Assembly (NCBI RefSeq): GCF_002864685.1 | Contig: NZ_NMQZ01000010.1 | Coordinates: 62,001 to 126,000, forward strand | DNA: 64,000 bases | Direction: 5' to 3' | From: Alloalcanivorax mobilis | Lineage (GTDB): Bacteria; Pseudomonadota; Gammaproteobacteria; Pseudomonadales; Alcanivoracaceae | Shown here: positions 7,247 through 28,674 of the stretch, piece by piece | How positions within the stretch are numbered: position 1 is the first letter of the stretch | Layout of the letters: each line of letters starts with the position of its first letter | The notes under the pieces: model-generated | Databases searched by the model: none | Seen by the model: only the letters and a program-made list of their open reading frames with translations | Told to the model about the DNA's origin: nothing | Translations under genes and position numbers: made by a program

Positions 7247-7704
7247 TGCCTGTCCCCTTGTTGACTGCTGTTGCCAACTGATCTGATAAAGGAATTTAAT
7301 AATAAACCGACCAGACGGTCAATGAAATTTCGAAAAAAATCAAAGTTCTTTTTTGGCACACATATAAGAAATATATGTATACCTTTAAATGGCCGCTACC
7401 CGCTCATTACCGCCAGTCAGCCCCCACGGTCTGGTGCAAAGGCACACCTGGTGCCCCCGCCGGTCGGATCAAACACCCCAGGGCTCTACTGTTAATAATC
7501 TGGAGAAAAACTGAAAACGCCGGCACACCGTCTTGCACGGTAGCGGATTACTCGCCGACGGTGAAGGAGGAGTGATCGTCACCGCCGAACCGCCGAAATG
7601 GTGTTATTTCGTTGGGTTTCCGGATATGCGCCCGGGCTTAAGCGCGGCTCAGTGACAATGGATATGAGCAGCACAACATGGCGATCATATAAACCGAATA
7701 GCCA
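7247..7704. other. Non-coding gap between two leftward operons
   Basis: No convincing gene is seen on either strand. The right part follows the stop of the crotonase gene from the neighbouring operon; the left part is the promoter region of the kinase operon. It is AT-rich around 7290-7390 and contains the operator at 7306-7319. Confidence 0.6.
7306..7319. promoter_or_regulatory. Predicted TetR operator, copy 1
   Basis: ACCGACCAGACGGT is an imperfect palindrome matching the consensus ACCGNCYRGNCGGT shared by five other sites in the window. It lies 60 bp before the kinase gene that heads the operon running to the TRAP transporter. The regulator is inferred to be the TetR protein at 28805-29407. 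Confidence 0.75.
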
Positions 7705-8910
7705 TCAACGCCCGGAGAATACGAATTTCTTATTCTGAAGAAACGACTGTATTCCTAACATTGCGTCGTTGCTGTCGGCACAACGGGACAGCGCTTCGGT
7801 TTCCCGAACCAGTTGGTCGGACAGTGTTCGGTCATAACTGCCCCGAAGTAGCCCCCTCGCCTCGCCGAACGCCAATGTCGGCCCAGTGGAGAGTTTCACA
7901 GCCAAGGCCTTGGCCCGCGGAAGCAGGTCCCGACCCGGTAGGTTTCTCGTCGCCAGCCCCCACTCCACCGCCTCTTCCGCGTTCAGAACGCGACCTTCAA
8001 AATAGAGCTCCGCCGCGCGCCGTTGTCCGATCAGCCGGGGTAAGTACCAGGAGTTGCCACCGTCCATCGACAGGCCCAGCGCGCCGAACCCGGTGGCGAC
8101 GCGCAGATCGTCGGCCACGTATACGATGTCCGCGACATAGAGCAGGCCCAGGCCACCGCCAGCCGCCGCGCCCTGAACCGCGGCGATCACCGGAACCGGC
8201 AGCCGGGATAGTATGTTCAGCGCCTGGTGATAAGCGGCGGTCATTTGATACAGGACAGCCGACAACCGTTTTTCTGAAAACCCGGCCAGGAAATTCAGAT
8301 CACCGCCGACGGTAAAATGCTCACCGGCGGCGCTGATCAGAAGCGCCCGAATCGACGGATCACCGCTGCAACGAATCGCCACCCGCTGCAGTTCCTCCGC
8401 CATGCTCAAGTCAATGGCGTTACGCGATGCCGGGCGGTTAAGTGTCAGTTCAGCAAGCCCGTCTTTCACCGTAAAGGTAACGGCTTCCGATGTTTCGCTC
8501 CGCGGCGGCCCAGACAAAGCCTGCTGCCAGAGAGCGCTGTCGGTAAGTTGACGCAGATGCGCCACACGGCACTCCGAGAATTGCAGCTCGTGAACGAATT
8601 CCGCCACCAGCGGACGACCGGATGCGCGGGCCAAGCCCTGGTATTCGCCACGAACCAACAGCCCGCCCGCTTCCAGTCTGTGAAAGGTTTCAGGCTGGGC
8701 ACGAGCGTCGAAAAGCCGCCCCAAACGTCCCCAGAAGTTACGCCGTGTGCTCTCGGCGCCAGTGTATTCACCGCCCAGGTCAGCGGGCATGCCCTCGGTC
8801 ATGTGCGCCGTGAAACGTGGATGCAATACCCGATCCAGAGTTTCACGATCACCTTCGGCAAGCGCGGCGTACAGCGCTTGTGCCACCTCGATCATCTCCG
8901 ATGTTTCCAT
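7705..8910 (-). CDS. SnoaL/NTF2-like domain fused to an enoyl-CoA hydratase/isomerase (crotonase)
   Basis: Residues 1 to about 125 look like an NTF2/SnoaL cone (MIEVAQALYAALAEGD, then LHPRFTAHMTEGMP). Residues 140-401 form a crotonase with the oxyanion-hole segments EHFTVGGDLNFL and GAAAGGGLGLLYVADIV. At the positions of the two hydratase glutamates it has Gly and the GLSMDGGNSWYLP arrangement, i.e. a lone aspartate as in PaaG and enoyl-CoA isomerases. Isomerase or ring-opening hydrolase activity is therefore more likely than plain hydration. It is the last gene of the operon starting at 15497, and GGGAGGAAAA precedes the ATG. The domain fusion is unusual for crotonases. Confidence 0.88.
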   Translation of the reverse strand: METSEMIEVAQALYAALAEGDRETLDRVLHPRFTAHMTEGMPADLGGEYTGAESTRRNFWGRLGRLFDARAQPETFHRLEAGGLLVRGEYQGLARASGRPLVAEFVHELQFSECRVAHLRQLTDSALWQQALSGPPRSETSEAVTFTVKDGLAELTLNRPASRNAIDLSMAEELQRVAIRCSGDPSIRALLISAAGEHFTVGGDLNFLAGFSEKRLSAVLYQMTAAYHQALNILSRLPVPVIAAVQGAAAGGGLGLLYVADIVYVADDLRVATGFGALGLSMDGGNSWYLPRLIGQRRAAELYFEGRVLNAEEAVEWGLATRNLPGRDLLPRAKALAVKLSTGPTLAFGEARGLLRGSYDRTLSDQLVRETEALSRCADSNDAMLGIQSFLQNKKFVFSGR

Positions 8911-8936
8911 TTTTCCTCCCTCGCCAGGTCACTGGC

Positions 8937-10091
8937 TCAAAGGCGTTTGGCGACTTCCTCCAACATCACTTCGGTTGCGCCGCCTCCAATGGTGAGAACA
9001 CGGGCATCCCGAACCATGCGTTCTATCGGCGTGCCCGTCATGTAACCCGTGCCACCATGCAACTGCAGGCACCCGTGCACCACCTCTTGCAGGGTTTCCG
9101 CCGCGTAGGCTTTCAACATGGAAACCTCGGCGATCACGTTCTGTCCGTTCTCGATCATGCGTGCGCACTGATAGGTGAGCGCTCTGGCCGCCGCGGCACG
9201 GGCGGTGAGATCGGACAGCTTTTGCCGCACGGCCTGCTGCTCCCACAAGGTCTTCCCAAACGCCTTTCGCGTCTTCACGTAATCAAGGGTCAGCTCAATG
9301 GCTTTCGAGCACTGGCCGGCGCACAGACCGCCCACCAGAAGACGCTCGTGCTGAAAGGTATCGACGATGTAGTAAAAGCCTTTGCCCTCCTCGCCGATCA
9401 TATTGCCGCTGGGTATGCGCACGTCATCGAAGTAAAGTTCGGCCGTATCCGAGCAGCGCCAACCGTGCTTGTCCAGTTTTCGTGCCACGGTAAATCCCGG
9501 TGTATCCCGTTCGACGATGAACATGGATAAGCCACGGCTGCCGCCGCCATTGGGATCAGTACGCGCGGCGACGATATAGACATCACCCTGCACGCCGTTG
9601 GTGATGAACATCTTCGCGCCATTGATTATCCAGTCGTCGCCGTCCCGGGTGGCGCGGGTACGCAATGCCGCTACGTCGGAGCCAGCGTCCGGTTCGGTCA
9701 CGCAGATGGCGCCGATCCTGTTCCCGGCACACGCATCGGGCAGATAGCGCTGCTTTTGCGCCTCACTGCCCCGTTTGACGATGTGCGACAAAGACATATC
9801 GGTGTGAACGGTGACCGAGGACGCGAAACCACCGAAGGTGCTCCGAGACAACTCCTCGGCGAACATAACCGCCGCGGTGACAGGCAACCCGCTGCCGCCA
9901 TAGGCTTCCGGTGTGCTGATGCCAAGAAATCCCAGATCGCCCATCTGTTTGAAAATCTGTCGGGGAATAAGACCTTCCAACTCCCAGGCCTCACCGTGGG
10001 GCACCACCACTTCTTCAACGAACCGGCGTATCTGTTGCCGTATCATCTCCAAGTGGTCGTCCAGCGGCGGTTCATTAAAGAAAAATGCCAT
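8937..10091 (-). CDS. Acyl-CoA dehydrogenase (IVD/LCAD-like catalytic Glu arrangement)
   Basis: This 384-residue FAD enzyme introduces an alpha,beta double bond into an acyl-CoA. The family signatures are ICVTEPDAGSDVAALRTRA in the middle and LQLHGGTGYMTGTPIERMVRDA near the end. The common C-terminal catalytic glutamate (usual YEG) is replaced by GGGATEV. FQHERLLVGG supplies a glutamate at the place used by isovaleryl-CoA and long-chain dehydrogenases, which suggests a branched or bulky substrate (inference). ATG 10091 is chosen because GGGAG lies eight bases upstream; an in-frame ATG at 10097 is too close to it. The electron acceptor would be ETF, which is not encoded here. Confidence 0.92.
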   Translation of the reverse strand: MAFFFNEPPLDDHLEMIRQQIRRFVEEVVVPHGEAWELEGLIPRQIFKQMGDLGFLGISTPEAYGGSGLPVTAAVMFAEELSRSTFGGFASSVTVHTDMSLSHIVKRGSEAQKQRYLPDACAGNRIGAICVTEPDAGSDVAALRTRATRDGDDWIINGAKMFITNGVQGDVYIVAARTDPNGGGSRGLSMFIVERDTPGFTVARKLDKHGWRCSDTAELYFDDVRIPSGNMIGEEGKGFYYIVDTFQHERLLVGGLCAGQCSKAIELTLDYVKTRKAFGKTLWEQQAVRQKLSDLTARAAAARALTYQCARMIENGQNVIAEVSMLKAYAAETLQEVVHGCLQLHGGTGYMTGTPIERMVRDARVLTIGGGATEVMLEEVAKRL

Positions 10092-10127
10092 GCTCATCGC
10101 TCCCTGTCTCAAGGCTGACCGAAGTCG

Positions 10128-11288
10128 TCATTCATGGATATGTATCGTTCCACGCCGGGCCAGCAGGCCGATTTCATCGTCCTGCAGACCAATACCGGCA
10201 AGAATCTGTCGACTGTGCCGTCCCGGTGGGACCACGCCATGGCGAATGCGGCCCGGGGTGCGTGAAAACCGTGGTGCCGGCGCCGGCTGTGTAACGTTAT
10301 CGATCTCGACGAAGGTGTCACGCGCGCGGTGGTGAGGGTGCTTCGGTGCCTCGTGCAGATCCAGCACCGGAGACACACAGACATCGCTGCCCTCCAGGCA
10401 CCGGCACCACTCATCGCGGCTCTTGCGTTGGAATATGTCCGCCAGCAGGTTCCGTTGTTCTGGCCAGGACGCGCGCCGCCACTGTTCATGCAGCCGTGGC
10501 TCATCCGTTTCCAGTTTACTGAGCAGCAACTGATAGAATTTGGGTTCGATAGCACCGACGGCCAAATGTTTGCCATCGGCGCAAAGATAGGCGCGGTAAA
10601 AAGGCGCCGCGCCATCAAGAAAATTGGATTCGCGCTGCGACTGCCACTGCCCCCCCGCCGCCAGGCCGTAGAACAGGCTCATCAAAGTCGTTGCGCCATC
10701 GCACATGGCGGCGTCGACCACCTGCCCCTGGTCACCACGTTGTGCCTCAAGCAAGGCACTGACCAGGCCGAACGCCAACAGCAGGCCGCCACCGCCATAG
10801 TCACCGATCAGGTTCAGCGGCACTGTCGGTGGCTGGCCATCGGAACCGATGGCATGCAGCGCCCCGGCCAGCGCGATGTAGTTGATGTCGTGCCCGGCGA
10901 CGCGGGATAACGGCCCTGTCTGCCCCCAGCCAGTCATGCGCCCATATACCAGTTTTGGATTGCGCGCGTGGCAGATCTCCGGCCCCAGGCCGAGACGCTC
11001 CATCACACCGGGTCGATAACCCTCGATCAATGCGTCAGCCTCTTCCACCAGCCGCAGCACCAAGGCAATGGCATCCGGATCCTTGAGATCCACGGCCAGC
11101 GAGCGGCGCCCCCGATCAACCACACTGGTGGGGCCCTTGAAACGCTCCAGAGCCGGCTCACCGGCACCCGGTTTACGTTCAATGCAGATCACATCGGCGC
11201 CCAGGTCCGCCAGCAACATGGCGCAGAATGGCCCTGGTCCAATGCCAGCCATTTCAACGACGGTGATCCCGCTGAGCGGTCCAGACAT
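10128..11288 (-). CDS. Alpha-methylacyl-CoA racemase-like protein (CaiB/BaiF class III family)
   Basis: The 386-residue protein has the class III CoA-transferase fold. It also carries the racemase residues: His133 in [12 protein letters not shown] and Asp163 in [10 protein letters not shown], spaced by 30 as in characterised alpha-methylacyl-CoA racemases (His126/Asp156 in the mycobacterial MCR). It probably epimerises the alpha-methyl centre of a 2-methyl-branched acyl-CoA so that a stereospecific dehydrogenase can act. This is the most substrate-informative gene in the cluster, because such racemases occur in isoprenoid and sterol side-chain degradation. GGGAG lies eight bases before the ATG. 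A CoA-transferase role cannot be excluded. Confidence 0.85.
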
Positions 11289-11291
11289 AAT

Positions 11292-12503
11292 TTACTCTCC
11301 CGGGGCGGCGACCAGGCCGCGTTGCAACAATCGGCCGTATTCGGCGCTGGTAACGCCAAGCCGTTCGGAAAGCATGCGCTCGGTGTGCTCGCCAAGGCGC
11401 GGCGCGGCGGTGGCGGGCACCCGTTCGCAATCGGAAAAATTCAGCGGCGACGCCGGCGTCAGTAGCGAACCAATGCCCGGCTGCCATACTTGCTCAAACA
11501 TCGGGTTAGCCAATGAACAGGCCGGATCGCTGGCGACCAGCCCGGCCACACTCTGATAGCGGCCCCAGCACACGCCCCGCTCGTCAAAGCAGGCGCGAAT
11601 CTGCTCGAAATCACGCTCGGCGAACCAGGGCTCGAACAACGCGGCAAGTACCTCGCGGGCCCGGTAACGGTCACCCTCTTGGCGGAAGTCCAATCCCTGT
11701 TGCCGCGCCAAACCCTCGATCCGATCGCCGCACCCGGTGGCATCGCAAAGCGCGCGCCACTGTTTCGCGGTCAATGCGACCACCATCAGCCGCTCGCCGT
11801 CGCGGCTGAGAAAATCGCGGCCAAAAGCCCCGTACAGATAATTACCACTACGCTCCCTCTCCACCCCCTGTTGCGCCTCGGCGATAAAGCCCAGGTGCCC
11901 AAGCGTGGCCATGGCGACATCTTCCAGAGCCAACCGCACCTGCTGGCCGCGGCCGCACCGACGCCGATGACGTTCCGCGGCCAGCAGGGCGGTGGCCAGC
12001 ATCTGACCGGATATCAGGTCCCAGGCTGGCAGCAGATGGTTGACCACGCCGCTTTCGCCAGTGAGCAGCGGCAAACCCGTGGCGGGATTGACGGTGTAAT
12101 CGACGGCCGAGCCACCGTGGCGGTCGCCCATCAGCACCACCTGAACAAGGTCGGCGCGTCGCTTCTTCAGAGCCTCGTAATCGAGCCAGCCACGCGCCGG
12201 GAAGTTGGTCGCCATCAGACCAGCGTCCTCGCCCGGCGCGGTGATCAGCGCCTGAGCCAGTTCGCGCCCTTCTTCGCGGCTCAGGTCCAGCGCCGCGGAG
12301 AATTTGCCTTTGTTGAGCCCCGCCCAGAACAGGCTGACGTTGTTATCAGTAACCGGCCAACGGCGATAGTCGAGCCCGCCACGCAGATCATCGATACGCC
12401 ATACCCGGGCGCCAAGTTGAGCCAGGGTCATGCCACCGAGGGGCGCGGCGACGAACGCGGAAAGTTCCACCACGTCCATTCCGGCGAGAACACTAGCCGA
12501 CAT
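11292..12503 (-). CDS. Class III CoA-transferase-fold protein, mesaconyl-CoA C1-C4 transferase-like
   Basis: This 403-residue CaiB/BaiF family member carries GGSAVDYTVNPATGLPLLTG, with the conserved Asp135 in the position of the catalytic aspartate. That block resembles 2-methylfumaryl-CoA isomerase (mesaconyl-CoA C1-C4 CoA transferase), which moves CoA within one molecule. It may shift CoA within a dicarboxylic ring-cleavage product, or transfer CoA between acids (inference). The start at 12503 is supported by GGGAGA and overlaps the end of the upstream dehydrogenase gene by 11 bases; the longer upstream frame is not protein-like. It is followed three bases later by the racemase-like gene. 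Confidence 0.85.
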   Translation of the reverse strand: MSASVLAGMDVVELSAFVAAPLGGMTLAQLGARVWRIDDLRGGLDYRRWPVTDNNVSLFWAGLNKGKFSAALDLSREEGRELAQALITAPGEDAGLMATNFPARGWLDYEALKKRRADLVQVVLMGDRHGGSAVDYTVNPATGLPLLTGESGVVNHLLPAWDLISGQMLATALLAAERHRRRCGRGQQVRLALEDVAMATLGHLGFIAEAQQGVERERSGNYLYGAFGRDFLSRDGERLMVVALTAKQWRALCDATGCGDRIEGLARQQGLDFRQEGDRYRAREVLAALFEPWFAERDFEQIRACFDERGVCWGRYQSVAGLVASDPACSLANPMFEQVWQPGIGSLLTPASPLNFSDCERVPATAAPRLGEHTERMLSERLGVTSAEYGRLLQRGLVAAPGE

Positions 12504-14205
12504 CGTCGTCTCCCTCGCGCAACGCCTCTTCGAGCAGCCCTCTGGCGATGACCTTGAGCGCCAGGGTCTCCTCGGCGCCTTCGAAGATCGACAGCACCCG
12601 GGCATCGACGAAATAACGGCTCACCGGCATCTCTTCGGCGTAACCCATACCACCGTGCAACTGAAGGGCCTCCCGCGTAACGGTCTCCGCGCCGCGACAG
12701 GCGAGCAGCTTGGCCTGGCTGGCCAAACGGCGCCCGGCGGGGGTCGTCAGATCCGCCGCCACGGCGTAGGCCAGTTGCCGGCAAGCCAGATAGCACCCCG
12801 CCATACGGGTAAGTTTGCCGAGTGTCAGCGGATAAGCGGCCAGGGGTTCACCGAACACACGGCGGTCACGGCTATATTGAACAGCGGCGCCGAGCGCCGC
12901 GCGCATCACTCCACAGGCGCGCCCGGCGGTTTGCAGGCGCCCTCCCATCATGCCCGTCATCGTCAGATAGAAACCTTTGCCCAGGCCGTTCTCGCCACCG
13001 ATCAGGTGGTCGGCGGGCACAAAGTAATCCTCGAAGGCGAGTTCAAAGGAGTGCATTCCACGATAGCCGATGGTGGCGATGGCGCGGCCGGTCAGGCGAC
13101 CATCACGCTCGCCGCCCACGGCAAAGTCGTGACCGTCGAAGGACGGTTTCTCCACCAGAAACGCACTCAGCCCGCGATGGCCCTTACTCCGATCCGGGTC
13201 GGTGCGGGCGATCACCAACAGTAATCCTGCCTTGCCGGCGAATGTGCACCAGGTCTTGGTGCCATTCAGCCGCCAGCCGCCCTCCACCGGGGTCGCGCGC
13301 AACGCCAGCCCGGCGACATCCGAACCGTAGTCCGGTTCGGTAATGGCGATGGCACACAGCGGTTCGCCGTTGGCGATGCGCGGCAACCAGTGTGCTTTCT
13401 GATCCTCGGTGCCACCGGCCAGCAACGCCCGGGTGAGAATTTCCGGGCGCGTGATCAGGCTGCCCGCGCCCCCCAGCGACACCTCGGAGAGCGCCTCGGT
13501 GACCACCAGCATCATCAGGTTGTCGTCGCTGCCGTCGTCGGCGCTGCCGCCGTAACGGGTGGGCACCGACAGGCCAAACAGCCCCAGTTCGCGCAGTGGC
13601 TGCAACAACGCTTCCGGAACGGTAAGGTCTTCGCGGTGGATCGCCTCCGCCAGCGGCGCGACGCGCTCGCGCGCCAGACGCTGGAACGCGTCTCGGGCCA
13701 TGGCCAGCTCCTCGCTGAGCGGCGGCTCACCGATGGCGCCTTCATGGGCCACCAGTAAGCGGCCGGTCTCCGCCAGGGCAGCGGCGCCGATCACTTCCCC
13801 TCTTAACGTCGCTACGACGTCGTTCGCCATCCATTGATACAGGCGTTGCCGGTCGTCATTGGCATCGATATCCAGAAACACCCGTTCCAAACGCGTGGCG
13901 ACGCTCGGCAGGGTCTCGACGATAGACACCAACGCCAGACGGCGCTCAAGCGGGCCTTGCAGAAGGTCCCATCGATCGAACAGACATTGAGCCGCGGCCA
14001 GCTCGGCGCTGGACAGCGCCAGCTGATAGCTGCTCTCTTGCCAGTATTCAAACCGCTCGACGTCAAGCGTCCCGGATCGGGCACAACGAGCCGTCAAACC
14101 TTGCACCGCTTCCTGGAAAAACGACCGCAACATAGGCAGCAAAACGGCGATCTTCTCCCGGGCGTCGGGCTGGCGTGCATAGGAAAGATTACTTATGCCA
14201 GTCAT
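12493..14205 (-). CDS. Long acyl-CoA dehydrogenase with helical N-terminal extension
   Basis: At 570 residues this is about 190 longer than a standard acyl-CoA dehydrogenase. Residues 1-165 form a helical extension (REKIAVLLPMLRSFFQEAVQ, later RVFLDIDANDDRQRLYQWMA); the dehydrogenase body follows. The body has IAITEPDYGSDVAGLALRAT, LQLHGGMGYAEEMPVSRY and the canonical catalytic glutamate in LSIFEGAEET. It would oxidise a different acyl-CoA intermediate from the shorter enzyme at 8937-10091. ATG overlaps the stop of the FAD oxidoreductase gene (ATGA). The extension resembles those of large FadE-type enzymes, but I cannot name a precise subfamily. Confidence 0.9.
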   Translation of the reverse strand: MTGISNLSYARQPDAREKIAVLLPMLRSFFQEAVQGLTARCARSGTLDVERFEYWQESSYQLALSSAELAAAQCLFDRWDLLQGPLERRLALVSIVETLPSVATRLERVFLDIDANDDRQRLYQWMANDVVATLRGEVIGAAALAETGRLLVAHEGAIGEPPLSEELAMARDAFQRLARERVAPLAEAIHREDLTVPEALLQPLRELGLFGLSVPTRYGGSADDGSDDNLMMLVVTEALSEVSLGGAGSLITRPEILTRALLAGGTEDQKAHWLPRIANGEPLCAIAITEPDYGSDVAGLALRATPVEGGWRLNGTKTWCTFAGKAGLLLVIARTDPDRSKGHRGLSAFLVEKPSFDGHDFAVGGERDGRLTGRAIATIGYRGMHSFELAFEDYFVPADHLIGGENGLGKGFYLTMTGMMGGRLQTAGRACGVMRAALGAAVQYSRDRRVFGEPLAAYPLTLGKLTRMAGCYLACRQLAYAVAADLTTPAGRRLASQAKLLACRGAETVTREALQLHGGMGYAEEMPVSRYFVDARVLSIFEGAEETLALKVIARGLLEEALREGDDDVG

Positions 14206-15497: not shown

Positions 15498-15546
15498 GCA
15501 TTGATCCTCGTAGTTACTGGGCCAATCGGGCCTCATTCTTTTATAT

Positions 15547-15560
15547 TCCGCCTGGACGGA
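15547..15560. promoter_or_regulatory. Predicted TetR operator, copy 2
   Basis: TCCGCCTGGACGGA is a palindrome matching the shared consensus with symmetric T/A end substitutions. It lies in the 100-bp gap between two leftward operons, 50 bp before the FAD oxidoreductase start. Confidence 0.7.
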
Positions 15561-15597
15561 CTATTTAAAATTTGCACTCATGCGAATCACCACCGGC

Positions 15598-19167: not shown

Positions 19168-19170
19168 GAG

Positions 19171-20649: not shown

Positions 20650-20678
20650 GCCTTGGTTCCTCTTTCCGGAATCGAAAA

Positions 20679-21581
20679 TTACCAGCAGCGACGCAGGAAG
20701 GCGCCGGCTTCGTCGAGTGCGGCGCGCGCCTCTGGAAGCTCGTGCATGAACTGCTGGAATACATGAATCATGCGCGGGTAGACCGCCAGCTCGACGGCGT
20801 TGCCCGCATCCCGAGCGAGCTCCACGAACCGGCGCGAATCATCGAGCACGGTTTCCGCCTCCCCGACCTGCAGCAGCATCGGTGGCAGCCCGTTCAATGA
20901 CGCGTACAAAGGAGAGGCCGCCGCATCGTCGGCGGCGATGCCAGCGCCCAGATAACCCGCCGCCATCGACTGAATCATCGGCCGTTGATGAATCGGATCG
21001 GCGTCGGCACGGCTTTCATAGCTCTCGCCGGTGGCAGCCAGGTCGGTCCAGGCGGACATCAGCAGCGCGCCGGCCGGCAGCGGTTCGCTCTGGTCGCGTA
21101 GGCGCAACAGCAGATTGAGCGCCAGATTGGCGCCAGCGGAATCACCGGCCAGGGCAATCCGCGCCGGATCGATGCCCTCTTCGATCAGGAAACGGTAAAC
21201 GGCCAGGCCATCCTCCACCGGCGCGGGATAGCCGTATTCCGGCGTGCACCGATAGTTCACGCCCAGCACCCGGCAACCCGCCGTGCGCGACAAATGCAGC
21301 ATCAACTCGGCGTGCGAAGCGACCGAGCCAACGCGGAAACCACCACCATGGAAGTAGATCAACGTACGAGTGTCGTCGGCGCCAGGCGCCGCAATCCAGG
21401 CTACCGGTACGCCCTTCGCGTCGAAGTAATGAGGCGTGATCGGCTCCCGAGGCTGGAACAGTCGTTCCCAATCAGCCCGCATTTCGGCCACCGATGTATC
21501 CCGGCGCCATCTGCCATAGACCCCACGCACCCGCTCGATCACTGCTTTCAGTGCCTGGTTGTCAGCGCTTTGAACATTCAT
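20679..21581 (-). CDS. Alpha/beta hydrolase, hormone-sensitive-lipase family esterase
   Basis: The 300-residue cytoplasmic hydrolase has the HSL oxyanion motif YFHGGGFRVGS, the nucleophile elbow ALAGDSAGANLALN, and a C-terminal histidine in YPRMIHVFQQF. It would hydrolyse a carboxylic ester or possibly a lactone of the pathway. ATG 21581 overlaps the stop of the SDR gene by four bases; the GTG nine bases upstream is less likely. Confidence 0.92.
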   Translation of the reverse strand: MNVQSADNQALKAVIERVRGVYGRWRRDTSVAEMRADWERLFQPREPITPHYFDAKGVPVAWIAAPGADDTRTLIYFHGGGFRVGSVASHAELMLHLSRTAGCRVLGVNYRCTPEYGYPAPVEDGLAVYRFLIEEGIDPARIALAGDSAGANLALNLLLRLRDQSEPLPAGALLMSAWTDLAATGESYESRADADPIHQRPMIQSMAAGYLGAGIAADDAAASPLYASLNGLPPMLLQVGEAETVLDDSRRFVELARDAGNAVELAVYPRMIHVFQQFMHELPEARAALDEAGAFLRRCW

Positions 21582-22318
21582 TGCCCGCACCCCATGCCGC
21601 CGGAAACACCAAGAACCTCACCGGTGATGAAACCGGCCTCGTCGGAGGCGACAAAGGCAACGGCAGCGGCGATTTCATCAACCCGCCCCAGCCGCCCCAC
21701 CAGAGTGGCACCCACCATGGCTCGATACAGCTTGTCGCCGCCGTCAACCAGCGCCTCCTTGAGCATCGGCGTTTCCACTGGCCCTGGAGCGATCACATTG
21801 GAGGTAATGCCATAACGGGCGTTCTCACGAGCCATCGAGCGGGAAAATGCCAACACCGCCCCTTTACTGGCGGCATACACAGCGCCACCGGCGGAGCCCA
21901 GCCGGGCCGCTTCGGAAGCGATGTGTACCAGCCGGCCGTAACCGGCACTCTGCATCGCCGGCAACACCGCCCGTGTCACGGCGAGCACCGCGGTCAAATT
22001 GACCGCCAGCAAGGCCTGCCATTGGGCCGGCGAAGTCTCCGTGAACCAGGCATGCTGATCCATGCCGGCGTTATTGATCAGTATCTGAAAGGGCGGCTCA
22101 TCGACCAAGGCGTGTTCCACCGCCGCCGTGTTGGTCAAATCCAGCTCCAGAAAGACGCTCCCCAGACGTTCGGCAAGTGGCCGGCCGGCGGCTTCATCGA
22201 TATCGGCGATCACTACCGCGGCGCCTTCCCCAGCCAGACGTTCGGCGATACCGGCGCCGATGCCTTTGGCGCCCCCGGTCACCAGTGCCCGCTGCCCTTG
22301 AAAGCGATTCGATACCAT
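21578..22318 (-). CDS. Short-chain dehydrogenase/reductase (SDR)
   Basis: This 246-residue classical SDR has the cofactor motif TGGAKGIGAGIAERL, then the NNAG block (ILINNAGMD), catalytic Ser in HIASEAARL and YAASKG. Asp at the end of beta-2 (VIADIDEA) predicts NAD preference. Given the dioxygenase genes it could oxidise a cis-dihydrodiol, or a 2-hydroxycycloalkanecarboxyl-CoA as BadH does; sequence alone does not decide. It lies four bases after the crotonase gene in the Rieske operon. Confidence 0.92.
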   Translation of the reverse strand: MVSNRFQGQRALVTGGAKGIGAGIAERLAGEGAAVVIADIDEAAGRPLAERLGSVFLELDLTNTAAVEHALVDEPPFQILINNAGMDQHAWFTETSPAQWQALLAVNLTAVLAVTRAVLPAMQSAGYGRLVHIASEAARLGSAGGAVYAASKGAVLAFSRSMARENARYGITSNVIAPGPVETPMLKEALVDGGDKLYRAMVGATLVGRLGRVDEIAAAVAFVASDEAGFITGEVLGVSGGMGCGQ

Positions 22319-22321
22319 GGC

Positions 22322-23152
22322 TCAGCGGCCCTTGAAAACGGGATCGCGCTTTTCGATCACCGCCGCCAAGCCTTCGCGGGAATCGGCGCTGCCGGAAAGC
22401 TCCGAAACGGTACGGCTCTCTTCTGGCAGGCAAGCCTCCACGCCCAAGCCGGCGCCGTTCCAAACCAGACGCTTGGTAGCGGCGAGGGCCAAGGGCGCGC
22501 CGGTGGCGATCCGCCGGGCCCAATCACGTGTTTGCGAATCCAGATCCGTCGTCGGCACCACGCGGTTGACCAGACCCATGTCCAACGCTTCGGCCGCGTC
22601 GATCACCGGGTTGTTGAGCAGAATGTCCATGGCGCGGCGTAAGCCGACGATACGCTGCAGCGTCACCGTGGCACCGGCGTCCGGGGCCATGCCAACGCGG
22701 GTCGCACCGGCCATGAAACGGGCGTCGTCGGCGGCGATCACCAGGTCCGCCGCGCACACCAGACCCAGGCCACCGCCGCCGGCGGCGTACCCTTGCACAC
22801 TGGCAATCACCGGTTGATTGAGCCGGATCAAGGCGCCGGACACGATCTGCAGATACGACGTCGCCTGACGAAGGTAGTCGGGCAACTGTTCGCCTTTGGC
22901 GGCAAAATCACGCACGTCGCCACCGGCACAGAAATGCCGGCCCTCGCCGGACAAAATCACAACCCGCAGACGGGCATCTCCGTGACAAGTCATAACCACG
23001 TCGTAAAGCCGGCGCAGAAGCTCCACGCTAAGCCCGTTAGCCGCGTCGGGGCGATTCAGCCGGATGTGCGCGATGCGACCGCTCTCAATGTCCAGCCGTA
23101 CCGGACCCTCTTTGATCACCGCTTCGACGTCGGAATTATTTTCCGTTTTCAT
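22322..23152 (-). CDS. Enoyl-CoA hydratase/isomerase family protein (Asp-type active site)
   Basis: The 276-residue crotonase has GRHFCAGGDVRDF and GYAAGGGGLGLVCAADLVI for the oxyanion hole. Its active-site loop reads TRVGMAPDAGATVTLQRIVG, again an aspartate rather than the paired hydratase glutamates. It lies directly downstream of the dioxygenase subunits, so it may act on the hydroxylated or dearomatised CoA ester as isomerase, or as a BadI-like ring hydrolase (inference). GGAGG precedes ATG 23152. Confidence 0.9.
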   Translation of the reverse strand: MKTENNSDVEAVIKEGPVRLDIESGRIAHIRLNRPDAANGLSVELLRRLYDVVMTCHGDARLRVVILSGEGRHFCAGGDVRDFAAKGEQLPDYLRQATSYLQIVSGALIRLNQPVIASVQGYAAGGGGLGLVCAADLVIAADDARFMAGATRVGMAPDAGATVTLQRIVGLRRAMDILLNNPVIDAAEALDMGLVNRVVPTTDLDSQTRDWARRIATGAPLALAATKRLVWNGAGLGVEACLPEESRTVSELSGSADSREGLAAVIEKRDPVFKGR

Positions 23153-23165: not shown

Positions 23166-23657
23166 TCAAATCAAGAACGACATGGAATAAAGAGCCTTGT
23201 CGTTGTTCACCAGATGGACGGTCTTGCGCGCCATGCGCAGCTCGCCGTTCACGCGACGCAGCAGATACTCATTGCGCGATGCCCAAACGATGTCGCCGCG
23301 CAGGTTGGACTCGAACACCAGGGCGTTGCTGATCGCGCGAATTTCATCACCCCCTTCGTCCAGCACTTCAACGTTGGACACTACACGCCGGAGCCGTGAT
23401 CGGGGCGCCTGGGCGTGCCGTTTCCCGGTGTGCAACTGGCGAATACGCAGGGCGATTCGCGACCGGTTGTCGTAGACGATGGACATGTCCCGTTCCGGGT
23501 CGCTGTGATCGCCGTTGGCGGGAATCCAGTAAACTCCGTCGTCGGTCCAAAGCGCTTCCCAGTCATCGTAGGCGTGGCCATCTTGGAAGCGGGCTTCACG
23601 ATAAATAAACTGAGTCACTTCGCTGAGCAGGCCGTCGGTATCCCGATTAAGCGCCAT
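23166..23657 (-). CDS. Ring-hydroxylating dioxygenase, beta (small) subunit
   Basis: The 163-residue protein has the small-subunit cone fold typical of alpha3beta3 Rieske oxygenases: FIYREARFQDGHAYDDWEAL, YDNRSRIALRIRQL, RLRRVVSNVEV and RNEYLLRRVNG, ending in MSFLI as these subunits do. It is structural and lacks metal ligands. ATG 23657 overlaps the alpha-subunit stop (TAATG) with GGAGGAG upstream; the longer upstream frame is not preferred. Its presence places the enzyme among the aromatic ring dioxygenases rather than alpha-only Rieske demethylases. Confidence 0.93.
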   Translation of the reverse strand: MALNRDTDGLLSEVTQFIYREARFQDGHAYDDWEALWTDDGVYWIPANGDHSDPERDMSIVYDNRSRIALRIRQLHTGKRHAQAPRSRLRRVVSNVEVLDEGGDEIRAISNALVFESNLRGDIVWASRNEYLLRRVNGELRMARKTVHLVNNDKALYSMSFLI

Positions 23658-24919
23658 TACCGCTCCTCCATGATTGTCCGGTAGTGTTGCCACATACCGC
23701 GCGACGGCACTTCGTCGGTGGCGTCGCCGACCATGAAGCCGTCCTCGTCACGACGCTCCCGGTTTTTTCCACGCCCAAGAAACACCCACTCCGGGTCGCG
23801 AACCTGAATACCGCGCTGATTGCGTTCATACATTTCCGAGTCGTCGGCCAGCAGAAAACCCGCCGGTCCCACCGAGCCCATGGTCTGCTGCCGAAGCCGG
23901 CGGTTCATTTCCGGCGCGCCCTTGAACTGCAGGGCGGTAACGTGCTGAACGGTTTCATTTACCGCCAGCGGTTGCAGTACGAAAATCTGAATTTCGGCGA
24001 TAAAGAGATTAGGAAAAATCATCGTGTGCGGAGTGCCGTCTATCATGATCTCCCTGGCTTTGTTCTCCCCATAGGCAGCGTTCATAGCCGCGACGTACTC
24101 GGGCATGCGCGCAGCCGAGGTGCCGAACCAGCCCAGCGGCTTATCAAGCCGTCGGAACTCAGGCCGCAGATCGTTCTCGGAATGACCATTGCCCAGATAA
24201 CGTGCCACCGCCGTGGAATCACTGCTGTATAAATCGCCAATGCCGCTTTGCGCCACGCTGAAAATAGAGGCATGAACAAACTGCGGGTGGTAGCCATCGG
24301 TTTCGTTTTCGAGCAGGAATTTCCAGTTGGCCCGCGCCTTGTGCTTGAGAAAACCAGCGGTAATTTCCACTTCGCCTTCCGGCGAATTGCGAACAAGCCG
24401 GTCGATGGCCTCACGGGCGCCGCCCAGGTGCTCTTCAAGCGACGGGCCTTGCTCCGCGAAAGAACCAAAAATAAAGCCTTTGTATTCGGCCACCCGCGCC
24501 ACTCGCCCCAACCCCAGTTCTTCCCGGTCGGTGCCTTCATATCCGGATGGAAACGGATAACCACGCAACTGGCCGGTATTGGAAAAGGTCCAGCCGTGAT
24601 AGGGGCAAGTAAAGGTCCGGCTGTTGCCTTTATCAAAAACGCACACCTGATTACCCCGATGGGTGCAACGATTGAGCAGCAGATGAATCTGGTCGTTGCG
24701 ATCGCGCGTCATGATGACAGGCTGCGGGCCAATGGACTTCAACACGTAGTCATTCGCGTTGGGCACTTCACTGGTATGCCCCACGTAGACCCAGGTCCGA
24801 TACCAGATCTTCTCAAGCTCTGCTTGGTAGAGAGCTTCGCTGGTGTACACCGAACCGTGTACATGCTCCGGACGAATCAACTCATTGATATCCGGTATCG
24901 CTGCGGCTTGAGCACTCAT
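23657..24919 (-). CDS. Ring-hydroxylating dioxygenase, alpha (large) subunit, Rieske type
   Basis: This 420-residue oxygenase component has a Rieske cluster with Cys85-His87 (CTHRGN) and Cys105-His108 (CPYHGW). The mononuclear iron site is seen in ENETDGYHPQFVHASIF with His211 and His216. It inserts dioxygen, normally as a cis-diol, using electrons from the ferredoxin (25287) and reductase (25678). The start at 24919 is chosen for the AGGTGA site; an in-frame ATG at 24967 lacks one. Benzoate/cumate-type oxygenases are the nearest in appearance, but the substrate is not determined. It heads the nine-gene operon, 120 bp from a predicted operator. Confidence 0.93.
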   Translation of the reverse strand: MSAQAAAIPDINELIRPEHVHGSVYTSEALYQAELEKIWYRTWVYVGHTSEVPNANDYVLKSIGPQPVIMTRDRNDQIHLLLNRCTHRGNQVCVFDKGNSRTFTCPYHGWTFSNTGQLRGYPFPSGYEGTDREELGLGRVARVAEYKGFIFGSFAEQGPSLEEHLGGAREAIDRLVRNSPEGEVEITAGFLKHKARANWKFLLENETDGYHPQFVHASIFSVAQSGIGDLYSSDSTAVARYLGNGHSENDLRPEFRRLDKPLGWFGTSAARMPEYVAAMNAAYGENKAREIMIDGTPHTMIFPNLFIAEIQIFVLQPLAVNETVQHVTALQFKGAPEMNRRLRQQTMGSVGPAGFLLADDSEMYERNQRGIQVRDPEWVFLGRGKNRERRDEDGFMVGDATDEVPSRGMWQHYRTIMEER

Positions 24920-25038
24920 GTCGTCACCTAACCCCACAAATGGAAACATGTTCTTCCATCCAGCCATTCCGACTTAGCGTCGGAAATGCTCGACGGCAAA
25001 TTGGCGGGAACACTCTGTTCCGATCAACCCAATCATAG

Positions 25039-25052
25039 ACCGACTGGACGGT
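25039..25052. promoter_or_regulatory. Predicted TetR operator, copy 3 (Rieske operon)
   Basis: ACCGACTGGACGGT within the flanks ATAG and CTTT matches the shared consensus fully. It is 120 bp before the alpha-subunit ATG. A half-site (ATAGACCGG) lies at 25064-25072. Confidence 0.78.
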
Positions 25053-25195
25053 CTTTGTAAACAATAGACCGGAAACTTCTTCCAATAATTCCTTAACCCA
25101 TTGTTATTGAATGGATAAATTTTCAATATCAGCCACCTTCCGCCACCTCTTCGACCGGAAATCGTACCTCCCATCCTCCAGATCACTAGACAAAT

Positions 25196-25253
25196 CAAGC
25201 CGCTCGTTAAATAATAGACCGTCTGGCCGGTCTATTATTTAACGAGCGGCTTG
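25196..25253. repeat. Perfect 26-bp inverted repeat with 6-bp centre, built around an operator
   Basis: The left arm (25196-25221) and right arm (25228-25253) are exact reverse complements, separated only by TCTGGC. The TetR-type palindrome forms the core of the repeat. It lies in the divergent intergenic region, 33 bp before the ferredoxin ATG. Confidence 0.9.
25218..25231. promoter_or_regulatory. Predicted TetR operator, copy 4 (ferredoxin gene)
   Basis: ACCGTCTGGCCGGT sits at the exact centre of the long inverted repeat, flanked symmetrically by ATAATAG and CTATTAT. It is 56 bp before the ferredoxin start. This is the most symmetric copy in the window. Confidence 0.8.
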
Positions 25254-25286
25254 TCTGCCAACCAACCGAAGAAGTAGAGAAACGAT

Positions 25287-25610
25287 ATGCCTCGAATCAC
25301 CTATATCGAACATGACGGCACCCGGCACGATGTGGAGGCCACCGCCGGCCAAAGCCTGATGCAAACCGCCATCGATAATCTCATTCCAGGCATTCTCGGT
25401 GACTGTGGCGGCGTTTGCAGTTGCGCCACCTGCCACGTCTATGTGAATCAGGCATGGGACGACGCCTTGCCGCCAATGTCCGAATCCGAGGAGTTCCTGC
25501 TCGAAGGTGTCCCTGACCGGCAGCCCGAAAACAGCCGGTTGAGCTGTCAGTTGACGGTGGATGAGAGCATGGATGGCATGGAAGTACGTCTTCCCGAGGA
25601 GCAGTACTAA
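25287..25610 (+). CDS. 2Fe-2S ferredoxin, adrenodoxin/putidaredoxin type
   Basis: The 107-residue ferredoxin has cluster cysteines in GDCGGVCSCATCHVYV plus a fourth in RLSCQLTV, the spacing of putidaredoxin-like proteins (Cys-x5-Cys-x2-Cys-x~36-Cys). It transfers electrons from the FAD reductase (25678-26922) to the Rieske oxygenase. It is the only rightward gene of the cluster, expressed alone from the divergent region with its own operator and closed by a hairpin. AGAGAAA precedes the ATG. Confidence 0.95.
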   Translation: MPRITYIEHDGTRHDVEATAGQSLMQTAIDNLIPGILGDCGGVCSCATCHVYVNQAWDDALPPMSESEEFLLEGVPDRQPENSRLSCQLTVDESMDGMEVRLPEEQY

Positions 25611-25611
25611 G

Positions 25612-25637: not shown

Positions 25638-25677
25638 TCCCCCCTGCTCTCAGGTTTCTCAATGCATTGGATGATCG

Positions 25678-26922
25678 TCAAACCACCTTACTCTCGACCA
25701 GCGCCTTCAACGGCCTATCCTCGCGGGCCAGATCGTCAGGCGCGGGTTGCGCGCGTGCCGCGACAAGACGGCGAGCGATCATGAAATCCTGCGGCCGGTT
25801 TACCGCGTCGGCGGAGATCAGCACACCCTCACGCAGATAGAAGGCGATAAAAGACCGCGACGCCCTCTCCCCTCGTATTACCAGTTCGTCGTAACCTTCC
25901 GAAAGACCAACCATCTGCAGTTTGAGTCCGTACTGATCGGACCAGAACCACGGGACCGCCGCATAGCGGATCGGCTCATCGCACAGCGTGGCGGCCAGCG
26001 CGCGCGCTTGCTCGGTGGCGTTGGGGACCGACTCTACACGCATATGACGGCCGTAGAAGTCATTTTCGTGATACGTGCAGTCTCCTACCGCATACACGTC
26101 AGGCACCGACGTTCGGCAACCGCTGTCCACCACGACGCCTTCCGGTAACACGGTTATCCCAGCTTCTTCCGCCAACCGGGTTTCCGGTATCAACCCGACG
26201 CCGACAATCACCAGATCCGCCTGCCGTTCGCGACCATCGGTAAGCCGCACCCAGGTGCCGGACTCCTCCGTCTCCAGGCATTTAACCGCCGCGCCGGTCA
26301 GGATTTCCACGCCGTGTTCGCGATGAACCGACTCGTAAAACTCAGACAACGCCGGCGCCGCCACCCTGGCGAGCACGCGGTCCATTGCTTCCACCACCGT
26401 GACCTTGAGGTCCGCCTTGATAGCCACGGCCGCGGTTTCCAAACCAATATAGCCACCACCGATCAGTACCAATCGAGCACCGGCGCAAAAGTGCTCTCGC
26501 AATCGCAGTACATCGTCAACGGTACGCACATAATGAACACAGTCCGAATCAGCGCCGGGCACCGGCAATGGCCGAGGGCGGCCACCGGTGGCGAGAACCA
26601 GATTGTTATAGCGCAAAGTCGAGCCGTCGGAGAGCCGCAAACGCCGCGCAATGGTGTCGATCGCCATGACACGCACACCTAAACGGCAACGGATACCGTG
26701 CCGCTGATACACCGCTTCGGGCTTCAGGTGCAAAGATTCCAGCGTGGCCTCTCCGGCGAGAAAGGCCTTCGACAATGGCGGCCGCCGGTATGGTGGATAA
26801 CGTTCCTCGCCAATCATAGTGATCGAGCCCGAATACCCTTTCTGACGAAGAGCCGTGGCCACTTCAGCGCCTGCTTGGCCCGCGCCGACAATGACTACGC
26901 CGGGAGCAGATTGATTAACCAT
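25678..26922 (-). CDS. FAD-dependent ferredoxin reductase (putidaredoxin-reductase type)
   Basis: The 414-residue NADH:ferredoxin reductase has the FAD motif GVVIVGAGQAGAEVATALR, the YPPYRRPPLSKAFL block conserved in this family, the NAD motif VLIGGGYIGLETAAVA, and the C-terminal DVYAVGDC FAD-contact segment. It passes electrons from NAD(P)H to the 2Fe-2S ferredoxin for the dioxygenase. The start at 26922 has GGAGG eight bases upstream; the stop of the preceding ligase gene overlaps this site region. It is cotranscribed with the second acyl-CoA synthetase. Confidence 0.93.
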   Translation of the reverse strand: MVNQSAPGVVIVGAGQAGAEVATALRQKGYSGSITMIGEERYPPYRRPPLSKAFLAGEATLESLHLKPEAVYQRHGIRCRLGVRVMAIDTIARRLRLSDGSTLRYNNLVLATGGRPRPLPVPGADSDCVHYVRTVDDVLRLREHFCAGARLVLIGGGYIGLETAAVAIKADLKVTVVEAMDRVLARVAAPALSEFYESVHREHGVEILTGAAVKCLETEESGTWVRLTDGRERQADLVIVGVGLIPETRLAEEAGITVLPEGVVVDSGCRTSVPDVYAVGDCTYHENDFYGRHMRVESVPNATEQARALAATLCDEPIRYAAVPWFWSDQYGLKLQMVGLSEGYDELVIRGERASRSFIAFYLREGVLISADAVNRPQDFMIARRLVAARAQPAPDDLAREDRPLKALVESKVV

Positions 26923-26936
26923 AGAATGCGCCTCCA

Positions 26937-28499
26937 TCAGGCGATACTGCGAGACGAGTCCGCCCAATAAGGCTCGCGCAATACATGCTTCATGATTTTG
27001 CCGGCCCCAGAGACCGGCAGGCTGTCTCGGAACTCGGTGCTAACCGGACACTTGTAGCCAGCGATCAAAGTCTTACAGAACACACGCAGTTCGGCCTCCG
27101 TGACCTCCTGGGCGGGTTGCAATACGACCACGGCATGCACCGCCTCACCCCACTTTTCGCTGGGAATACCAATCACCGCGCAACTCTGCACCGCCGGATG
27201 CTGGCACAAGGCGTTCTCCACCTCGCTGGAATAAACGTTCTCGCCGCCGGACACGATCATGTCCTTGAGCCGATCGACAATGAACAGGAAACCGCGATCA
27301 TCGATATATGCGACGTCGCCGGAATGCATCCATCCATCACGCAGCGCCGTGCGGGTTTCGTCCTCTCGCCCCCAATAACCCTGCATGACACCCGGCCCGC
27401 GAGTGACGATTTCGCCAACGGTCCCGGACGGCACCGGATCGCCATTCTCGCCGACAACACGCACCTCAATGCCCCACATGGCACGACCAGCAGAGCGAAG
27501 CATGCCCGCTTTCTGGCCTTCAGAACCATGGCACCAAGCCGGCAGAATCGTGTAGGGTCCACCGGTTTCCGTCATGCCATAACCCTGGTAAAAACGGACT
27601 TTTGGCAGGACCTTGAAAGCCCGTTCAAGAACCCCCTCGCTGATCGGCGATGCACCATAAAGAACACGGCTCAGGCTACCAAGGTCGTAGCGCCCTGCTT
27701 CCGGATGGTCCACCAACCGTTGCACCATGGTCGGCACCAGCAATGTGAAAGTGGCGCGATGCTCCTCAATGGCTCTCATCACCGCCACCGGCTCGAACTC
27801 ATCCACGACCACCATAGGGCAGCCACGCAGCAACGCTCGGACGATGATGCACATGCCCGCCTGATGAAAAATCGGCGCCACCCCCAGCACCACATCATCG
27901 TCGCTATAGGGCAGCTCCAGCAGATAACCGAGGGCATTGCTGAGCAGGTTGAGGTGCGAGAGCATCACGCCCTTCGGGAAACCGGTGGTTCCCCCGGTAT
28001 AGAACACACCGGCGAGATCATCACCGCTGCGGCGCGCATCCTCCGCCGGCACCGCGTCACGAAGCAAGGCTTCATAGTGCAGTAGGCCCTTTGGCGCTTC
28101 GCCATCACCGACGTAAATCACCGTGTGCAATGCCTTGGATTGCTCACGCAACGCATCCCCCCAGGACGCGAAACGCTCATCCACCAGAAGAATGCCGGTG
28201 CCGCAATCGTCCAGCGAAAATGCCACCTCGGCCTGGCTCCAGCGCGTGTTGACGGGGTTTAAGGCACCACCTGCCCACCACACGCCAAGCATGTATTCAA
28301 TGTAATAATCAGAGTTGAGACCCAGCATGCCGACCCGCTCGCCGGCTTTCAGGCCCAACCTATGCAGCGCCCCGGCCAGCCGGGCGACCCGCTCGGCCAA
28401 ATCCGCCCAGGTGCGTTGCCGGTCTCGAAAAATCACGGCCGTAGCGCCGGAGTTTTGCTGCTCGAGTCGATGCAAGGCGTGGGTCAGTTCAAACTGCAT
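26937..28499 (-). CDS. Acyl-CoA synthetase (AMP-forming), second copy
   Basis: The 520-residue ligase has the P-loop YTGGTTGFPKGVMLSH, the YGMTETGGPY block, the GWMHSGDVAYIDDRGF hinge with DRLKDMIVSGGENVY, and the lysine-bearing SGAGKIMK near the C-terminus. It is clearly paralogous to the ligase at 3011-4567, sharing long stretches, and probably activates another acid of the same pathway. GGGAG precedes ATG 28499 and a predicted operator is 87 bp upstream. Its partner gene encodes the ferredoxin reductase, tying acid activation to ring oxygenation. Confidence 0.93.
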   Translation of the reverse strand: MQFELTHALHRLEQQNSGATAVIFRDRQRTWADLAERVARLAGALHRLGLKAGERVGMLGLNSDYYIEYMLGVWWAGGALNPVNTRWSQAEVAFSLDDCGTGILLVDERFASWGDALREQSKALHTVIYVGDGEAPKGLLHYEALLRDAVPAEDARRSGDDLAGVFYTGGTTGFPKGVMLSHLNLLSNALGYLLELPYSDDDVVLGVAPIFHQAGMCIIVRALLRGCPMVVVDEFEPVAVMRAIEEHRATFTLLVPTMVQRLVDHPEAGRYDLGSLSRVLYGASPISEGVLERAFKVLPKVRFYQGYGMTETGGPYTILPAWCHGSEGQKAGMLRSAGRAMWGIEVRVVGENGDPVPSGTVGEIVTRGPGVMQGYWGREDETRTALRDGWMHSGDVAYIDDRGFLFIVDRLKDMIVSGGENVYSSEVENALCQHPAVQSCAVIGIPSEKWGEAVHAVVVLQPAQEVTEAELRVFCKTLIAGYKCPVSTEFRDSLPVSGAGKIMKHVLREPYWADSSRSIA

Positions 28500-28585
28500 T
28501 GTGATTCTCCCGAAGTTTTTCTGTTCTCATGACGGGGAGGCCGTTGGGCCTCGTCAAAATGTGACGACTTGATCATCAATCATAG

Positions 28586-28599
28586 ACCGTCCAGACGGA
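28586..28599. promoter_or_regulatory. Predicted TetR operator, copy 5 (ligase-reductase operon)
   Basis: ACCGTCCAGACGGA, with ATAG before and CTTT after, matches the consensus with one terminal change. It is 87 bp before the ligase ATG, in the divergent region shared with the TetR gene. Confidence 0.77.
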
Positions 28600-28660
28600 C
28601 TTTGAAAAGAGGAAACGTAATGCGCCTTTGAACTTGGTCTCGCCCTACCCTGTTTATTCG

Positions 28661-28674
28661 ACCGACGGGGCGGA
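28661..28674. promoter_or_regulatory. Possible degenerate TetR operator, copy 6 (autoregulation)
   Basis: ACCGACGGGGCGGA matches the consensus except at position 7 and the last base. It lies about 130 bp before the TetR start, on the regulator side of the divergent region. A weaker site is plausible for autoregulation. Confidence 0.45.

What the first reader, a model, noticed from the sequence alone, without database searches (positions are those of the whole stretch)
7306..28674. One TetR operator repeated at every transcription-unit head of a 28-kb catabolic region
Five strong palindromes (7306, 15547, 25039, 25218, 28586) and one weaker copy (28661) share ACCGNCYRGNCGGT, often with ATAG and CTAT flanks. 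Each sits 50-131 bp upstream of a gene that starts a unit: kinase, FAD oxidoreductase, Rieske alpha, ferredoxin, ligase and the TetR gene. No copy was noticed inside operons. This joins about 26 genes into a single regulon and gives a search pattern for unlinked members, such as the missing ring-cleavage genes.
Basis: partly seen in the sequence, partly recalled or inferred. Interest (0 to 1): 0.75.

Follow-up and report, generated by a model that had tools for sequence, protein, structure and literature searches.

The report
PaaR-like TetR operator unites catabolic cluster
One repressor gene and six copies of its probable DNA binding site appear to switch a whole set of about 27 degradation and uptake genes on and off together, an arrangement that is kept in distantly related bacteria and resembles the known phenylacetate regulator PaaR.

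Summary
The 14-bp core alone is weak (18 exact places genome-wide, 3 of them in the cluster). With flanks the site is a 22-bp palindrome, ATAGWCCGWCNNGWCGGWCTAT. In the whole genome a relaxed pattern finds those six plus one stray. Of 57 genomes, only the two that hold this TetR have matches at 0-1 mismatch. Sites head the corresponding units beside TetR orthologs in Alcanivorax, Variovorax and Hydrogenophaga; 37 of 47 fit in a -35/-10 spacer. The core fits the published B. cenocepacia PaaR operator. Best reading: a PaaR-like TetR repressor, probably released by a pathway acyl-CoA (inferred), controls about 27 genes. Corrections: site 15547 lies inside a co-directional gene run; no unlinked regulon member was found, so the operator does not lead to ring-cleavage genes. 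Binding and effector are untested. New member of a known kind.

The parts
7303..7322 (.). operator 1, head of the kinase/ligase/TRAP-transporter unit (minus strand), 59 bp from the start at 7246
   Evidence: scores 25.5 and 20.6; candidate ATTTCA-18-TATTAT promoter around it
15544..15563 (.). operator 2, upstream of the FAD amine-oxidase-like gene; lies in a 61-98-bp gap of a minus-strand gene run
   Evidence: scores 22.6 and 16.3; counterpart in Alcanivorax S71-1-4 scores 18.0 (L058:15544); absent in six of six betaproteobacterial clusters; failed the promoter-spacer test
25036..25055 (.). operator 3, head of the Rieske-alpha unit (minus strand)
   Evidence: scores 30.3 and 25.8; TTTACA-18-TATGAT with the operator in the spacer; identical 22-mer in S71-1-4
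25215..25234 (.). operator 4, head of the ferredoxin gene (plus strand)
   Evidence: scores 29.5 and 25.2, no mismatch to the 22-mer
25196..25253 (.). perfect inverted repeat, 26-bp arms and 6-bp centre, enclosing operator 4
   Evidence: RNA fold -47.5 kcal/mol against -18.3 in shuffles; S71-1-4 lacks the perfect arms
28583..28602 (.). operator 5, head of the CoA-ligase/ferredoxin-reductase unit (minus strand)
   Evidence: scores 29.5 and 20.3; identical 22-mer in S71-1-4; TTTTCA-18-TATGAT
28658..28677 (.). operator 6, nearest to tetR
   Evidence: scores 15.9 and 22.1; block partly conserved in S71-1-4 though its score there is 7.9; a second weak site near tetR also in Variovorax SRS16 (L112:36295, 15.4)
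28805..29407 (+). TetR regulator (200 aa)
   Evidence: PF00440 + PF17932; model closest to 3ccy and PfmR 3vpr
26937..28499 (-). AMP-binding acyl-CoA ligase
25678..26967 (-). ferredoxin reductase
25287..25610 (+). 2Fe-2S ferredoxin
23657..24967 (-). Rieske oxygenase alpha
23166..23693 (-). Rieske oxygenase beta
15598..23152 (-). seven genes of the Rieske unit: enoyl-CoA hydratase, SDR, alpha/beta hydrolase, HMG-CoA-synthase-like/OB fusion, thiolase, enoyl-CoA hydratase, 3-hydroxyacyl-CoA dehydrogenase
7705..15536 (-). six genes: FAD amine-oxidase-like, acyl-CoA dehydrogenase, two class III CoA-transferases, acyl-CoA dehydrogenase, SnoaL/enoyl-CoA hydratase
1..7246 (-). eight genes: APH-type kinase, 148-aa ORF without a Pfam match, Rv3169-like, CoA ligase, DUF2889, TRAP DctP, DctQ, DctM (DctM runs about 585 bases past the left edge of the window)

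Best explanation
A TetR-family repressor (28805-29407), whose operator core is that of the phenylacetate regulator PaaR and which resembles a TetR of a paa cluster, binds a 20-22 bp palindrome placed in the -35/-10 spacer of the promoters that head the catabolic and uptake units. Its dimer blocks RNA polymerase, at its own promoter too. An acyl- or aryl-CoA thioester made by the ligase that it controls releases it, switching on ligase, Rieske oxygenase system, CoA-thioester degradation enzymes and TRAP transporter together (27 genes). Shown by sequence: sites, positions, conservation and co-occurrence with this TetR. Inferred: binding, repression and the CoA-ester effector.
For: De novo motif from seven other loci has the six sites as its six best places in the window; the matrices agree. 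Genome-wide: 6 of 7 relaxed matches are the six sites. Co-occurrence: 4 and 3 matches at 0-1 mismatch in the two genomes with this TetR, none in the other 55. In six betaproteobacterial genomes 28 matches at 0-1 mismatch, 27 on the contig that carries the TetR. Corresponding heads in relatives. Two stretches with homologous Rieske genes but without this TetR lack the site (best 9.5 and 10.4); a third has one hit of 16.7 inside a coding region. Promoter-spacer placement in 37 of 47 sites, 15 of 3000 random positions. Core fits the B. cenocepacia PaaR operator, tested there by mutation. A TetR 36% identical sits in a paa cluster of Paracoccus with a site of score 18.3 upstream of paaG. Structural neighbours include CoA-ester complexes of AibR and FadR.
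Against: No binding or expression data. Reversed-pattern controls give as many or more places in total: 7 against 7, 9 against 9, 20-44 against 8-26 per genome, 38 against 19 over 57 genomes with up to 4 in one genome; the case rests on clustering and on low mismatch numbers, not on totals. The training sites had been picked with a window-derived pattern, so its ranking is partly circular; one search was added for that reason. The random positions were not matched for composition, and the operator's own ends supply part of the -10. Five betaproteobacterial genomes carry a second TetR (43-48% identical) beside the same kind of site. 15547 has no betaproteobacterial counterpart. The kinase/TRAP unit was not found in the stretch of S71-1-4 that I took. 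Fold neighbours also include DarR, which binds a nucleotide.
Confidence: 0.86

Rival explanations
1. The sites are operators, but site 15547 does not head a separate unit: the amine-oxidase group is read through from the Rieske promoter, and 15547 is an extra internal promoter or roadblock inside one long operon.
For: Co-directional genes with a 61-98-bp gap; in six of six betaproteobacterial clusters no site precedes this gene; the site failed the promoter-spacer test. MbdR has an internal regulated promoter inside its operon (passages).
Against: The site is present in both Alcanivoracaceae clusters, scores 22.6 and 18.0, and a TATAAA lies next to it.
Confidence: 0.35
2. Another TetR encoded elsewhere in the genome, not the linked one, binds these sites.
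For: TetR paralogs beside similar sites exist in betaproteobacteria.
Against: The only other relative found in this genome at E<=1e-20 is 32% identical (C7) and its 3.6-kb locus has no site, best -1.7. Sites and the linked TetR occur together across genomes.
Confidence: 0.06
3. The palindromes are not operators but terminators, repeats or chance.
For: Site 25218 forms a very stable hairpin.
Against: Position upstream of starts, conservation between classes, spacer placement, no 0-1-mismatch match in 55 genomes without the TetR. Order-3 Markov sequences, 200 x 64 kb, reach 19.0 at most in the matrix; five of the six sites exceed that.
Confidence: 0.02

Closest known systems
PaaR of Burkholderia cenocepacia (BCAL0210; PMC2770484, passages read)
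   Same: TetR type; operator ACCGACCGGTCGGT fits the core pattern at every position; inverted repeats lie between putative -35 and -10; several units of one CoA-thioester pathway
   Different: regulates phenylacetate genes; here the units hold a Rieske system, beta-oxidation-like genes and TRAP uptake. The paaA of this genome is on another contig and its 3.9-kb locus has no site. The BCAL0210 protein itself was not compared.
MbdR of Azoarcus sp. CIB (PMC4424350, passages read)
   Same: TetR repressor of several promoters of one cluster, including one for the CoA ligase and its own; inducer is the first CoA intermediate
   Different: operator ATACN10GTAT is different; anaerobic pathway; protein not compared directly
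PaaR of Thermus thermophilus (TTHA0973; PMC6651687 and PMC9493321, passages read)
   Same: TetR with phenylacetyl-CoA as effector and a 14-bp inverted repeat
   Different: half-site AACG instead of ACCG; protein not compared directly
PDB 3ccy (Bordetella parapertussis TetR) and 3vpr (PfmR, T. thermophilus)
   Same: closest solved relatives by sequence and by fold
   Different: 36-38% and 30-31% identical; 3ccy has no function stated in the listing

Membership tests
TetR/AcrR regulators | N-terminal TetR HTH and all-helical C-terminal domain | tested here: met
   PF00440 2.3e-16 and PF17932 1.6e-22; AlphaFold model mean pLDDT 82.4, all helices; best PDB matches are TetR proteins
TetR/AcrR regulators | palindromic operator next to the regulator gene | tested here: met
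   de novo motif 81-126 bp upstream of tetR in seven of seven loci given; also in S71-1-4 and Variovorax SRS16
PaaR | operator ACCGACCGGTCGGT-like in the promoter spacer | tested here: met
   published operator fits the core pattern; spacer placement in 37 of 47 sites
PaaR | regulates paa genes | tested here: not met
   no PaaABCDE family among the cluster proteins scanned; the genome's paaA is on contig C10, its 3.9-kb locus scores -3.1 at best, and no flanked match lies on C10
PaaR | phenylacetyl-CoA as effector | not testable with these tools
   needs ligand binding
MbdR | operator ATACN10GTAT | tested here: not met
   sites read ATAG-14-CTAT with ACCG..CGGT inside
single regulon | strong sites confined to the genomes and region with this TetR | tested here: met
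   at 2 mismatches ten of the other 55 genomes have one match each, and reversed-pattern controls are as frequent in total

The most novel reading that the evidence does not exclude
An undescribed regulon for a CoA-thioester ring-degradation pathway without ring-cleavage dioxygenase genes: repressor, operator and enzymes are shared as one module between Alcanivoracaceae and Comamonadaceae, with a PaaR-type operator re-used for a different substrate. In betaproteobacteria two or three paralogous TetRs share the operator and may split one regulon between two inducers.
Probability: 0.45. Interest if true: 0.55.

Novelty: new member of a known kind. Interest (0 to 1): 0.42.

Why it matters
It assigns a regulator, a testable operator and a list of 27 probably co-controlled genes to a pathway whose substrate is unknown. 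The first promoter to test is that of the ligase, whose CoA product is the likely inducer, so the operator gives a reporter for finding the substrate. It also suggests that a PaaR-type operator serves pathways other than phenylacetate.

Tried and rejected
Core pattern as a genome search: rejected as unspecific. Of the 15 exact core places outside the cluster, 12 were held as 3-kb loci (L001, L005-L015) and score 9.9 or less at best in the matrix; three (C56, two on C67) were not fetched. The strays L021-L025 reach 13.8 (C88). Ibuprofen (ipf) pathway as the identity of the cluster: suggested to me by Rieske + thiolase + OB-domain genes (recalled); in PMC9195938 I read passages only and made no sequence comparison, so it is left open. 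Literature: searches turned up no description of this regulon in the held library; most subscription papers are missing from it, and these were judged from their listings except for the papers named below. The substrate was not identified.

Errors of mine: searches failed on wrong ferredoxin coordinates and were repeated. In one search two TetR rows were translated on the wrong strand; that tree was discarded and redone. I labelled 3vpr 'PaaR'; one search shows that it is PfmR. One search was a submission with faulty formatting.
Full report
What was checked. The finding names six palindromes and one TetR gene. All six are where stated. Three match the stated 14-bp core exactly, one has 1 mismatch and two have 2. 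The core alone is not specific: at up to 2 mismatches there are 43 places in the window (14.6 in shuffles), and in the whole genome 18 exact places, only 3 of them in the cluster, against 14 for the reversed control. The signal is in the flanks: TAGACCGNCYRGNCGGTCTA at up to 3 mismatches gives 5 places in the window against 0.05 expected.

Test from other genomes. TetR orthologs were found in Alcanivorax sp. S71-1-4 (82% identical) and in seven betaproteobacterial loci (Variovorax, Hydrogenophaga and unnamed Burkholderiales or Betaproteobacteria; 57-60%) (the other 17 loci of that call are short distant matches at 41-46% and were dropped). De novo motif search in the 250 bp upstream of tetR in the seven betaproteobacterial loci, with no pattern and no symmetry given, returns a motif like ATAGWCCGTCYNGTCGGTCTAA 81-126 bp before the start in seven of seven. 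From four of the seven loci the same six come first, but the margin is thin (13.3 against 12.3). A symmetric matrix from eight loci gives 30.3, 29.5, 29.5, 25.5, 22.6 and 15.9, next 5.0; its training sites had been picked with the window-derived pattern, so it is not fully independent. In 100 order-2 Markov sequences of 64 kb the best score was 19.7; in 200 order-3 sequences 19.0, with 0.01 places per sequence at 15.9 or more. Without S71-1-4 the symmetric matrix gives the same six, and symmetric column-permuted matrices reach a top-six sum of 78.6 at most, against 145.3.

Genome-wide. ATAGWCCGNCNNGNCGGWCTAT at up to 3 mismatches gives seven places in this genome: the six sites and one stray on C88, matrix score 13.8. 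In S71-1-4 nine places: the four with 1-2 mismatches are all in the cluster, and of five with 3 mismatches one is. In six betaproteobacterial genomes a similar 20-mer gives 28 places at 0-1 mismatch, 27 on the contig that carries this TetR, within 42 kb in each genome, and one on another contig of a fragmented assembly (its rows for S71-1-4 were cut off, hence). Among 57 genomes (own included) at up to 2 mismatches this genome has 5 places and S71-1-4 has 4; of the other 55, 45 have none and ten have one each, all at 2 mismatches. Reversed-pattern controls are as frequent or more so in total: 7, 9, 20-44 per genome, and 38 over the 57 genomes with up to 4 in one. Totals therefore prove nothing; clustering around the TetR and low mismatch numbers do the work. 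This TetR is rare: an ortholog in 2 of 57 genomes, 2 of 390 genomes of the order at E<=1e-40; in the class, at E<=1e-30, 2 of 369, one being this genome and the other 35% identical.

Conserved unit heads. In five betaproteobacterial clusters and in Variovorax SRS16 one strong site lies between the divergent Rieske-alpha and ferredoxin genes (6 of 6); the two Alcanivoracaceae have two sites there. A site lies between TetR and the divergent reductase or ligase gene in all ten clusters seen, the window's included. Sites also head units with TRAP transporter, kinase, Rv3169-like and ligase genes, branched-chain-type ABC transporter and ligase genes, flavodoxin-like and thioesterase genes, and the counterpart of the acyl-CoA dehydrogenase 8937-10112, which in five genomes is divergent from a second TetR. 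In S71-1-4 one more site heads a BNR/MMPL/DUF1302/DUF1329 unit and another the same acyl-CoA dehydrogenase; its kinase/TRAP unit was not found in the stretch taken. The site before the amine-oxidase-like gene (15547) is shared only by the two Alcanivoracaceae; in six of six betaproteobacterial clusters this gene is internal and has no site. Natural controls: stretches with homologous Rieske genes but without this TetR in Sulfitobacter and Rhodococcus have no site (best 9.5 and 10.4); in a Mycobacterium avium plasmid the best hit, 16.7, lies inside the Rieske coding sequence.

Mechanism. Of 47 sites above score 17, 37 fit between a -35-like and a -10-like hexamer with a 16-18 bp spacer, against 15 of 3000 random positions. 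The control is not matched for composition and the operator's ends supply part of the -10. The clearest cases read TTGACA-18-TATTAT at five betaproteobacterial Rieske promoters. Of the window's five sites in that set four pass and 15544 does not. The Rieske promoter reads TTTACA-18-TATGAT and the ligase promoter TTTTCA-18-TATGAT. This is the layout described for B. cenocepacia paaA, where the inverted repeat ACCGACCGGTCGGT between -35 and -10 was tested by mutation. A repressor that excludes RNA polymerase is therefore the most likely mechanism. The CoA-ester effector is an inference from PaaR and MbdR, from structural neighbours that bind CoA esters (AibR, FadR, where DarR, a nucleotide binder, also ranks high) and from the ligase being next to a site.

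Pathway. The 27 genes encode two CoA ligases, a Rieske oxygenase with ferredoxin and reductase, three enoyl-CoA hydratase-like proteins, a PaaH-like dehydrogenase, a thiolase with an HMG-CoA-synthase-like/OB fusion, acyl-CoA dehydrogenases, CoA-transferases and a TRAP transporter. No ring-cleavage dioxygenase is among them. A ring opening at the CoA-thioester level would explain this, and fits weak resemblances to oxepin-CoA hydrolase of the alternative type (below cut-off). The substrate remains unknown.

Classification. TetR family: met. PaaR: operator met, target genes not met, effector untestable; so it works like PaaR but is not filed as PaaR. MbdR: operator not met. It is a new member of a known kind, well supported by comparison and untested at the bench.

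Noticed in passing
25196-25253: Operator 4 is the centre of a perfect 58-bp inverted repeat (26-bp arms) that S71-1-4 lacks; it looks like a recent templated mutation and could form a strong hairpin if transcribed.
   Followed up: partly
25063-25072: A single half-operator AATAGACCGG lies 10 bp beyond the core of operator 3; not seen in S71-1-4.
   Followed up: no
L096:4308, L101:9863, L104:6140, L105:5595, L108:5289, L106:5375: Five betaproteobacterial clusters carry a second TetR (43-48% identical), and one a third (43%); the second sits beside its own copies of the operator, with slightly different centres.
   Followed up: partly
L117:3203: A Paracoccus plasmid has a 36% identical TetR inside a paa cluster and a matching site upstream of paaG.
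   Followed up: partly
L116:7879 and L116:8671: A 41% identical TetR on a Variovorax RA8 plasmid has sites of score 15.9 and 20.8 on either side of it, the latter before a MaoC/enoyl-CoA hydratase/OB/thiolase run.
   Followed up: no
29431-29772: Fragment that reads like the end of an IS3-type transposase (recognised by eye, not scanned) between tetR and mutS; the tetR-mutS neighbourhood is shared with S71-1-4.
   Followed up: no
19171-20649: HMG-CoA-synthase-like protein fused to a ChsH2-type OB domain beside a thiolase, in a bacterial catabolic operon; nearest solved relatives include PhlA and a hydroxymethylglutaryl-CoA synthase, 6esq.
   Followed up: partly
L112-L115: Homologous Rieske genes occur on plasmids of Variovorax (with this TetR), Sulfitobacter, Rhodococcus and Mycobacterium avium (with other TetR genes nearby); in all but the Sulfitobacter stretch thiolase and OB-fold or synthase-III-like genes are beside them.
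   Followed up: partly
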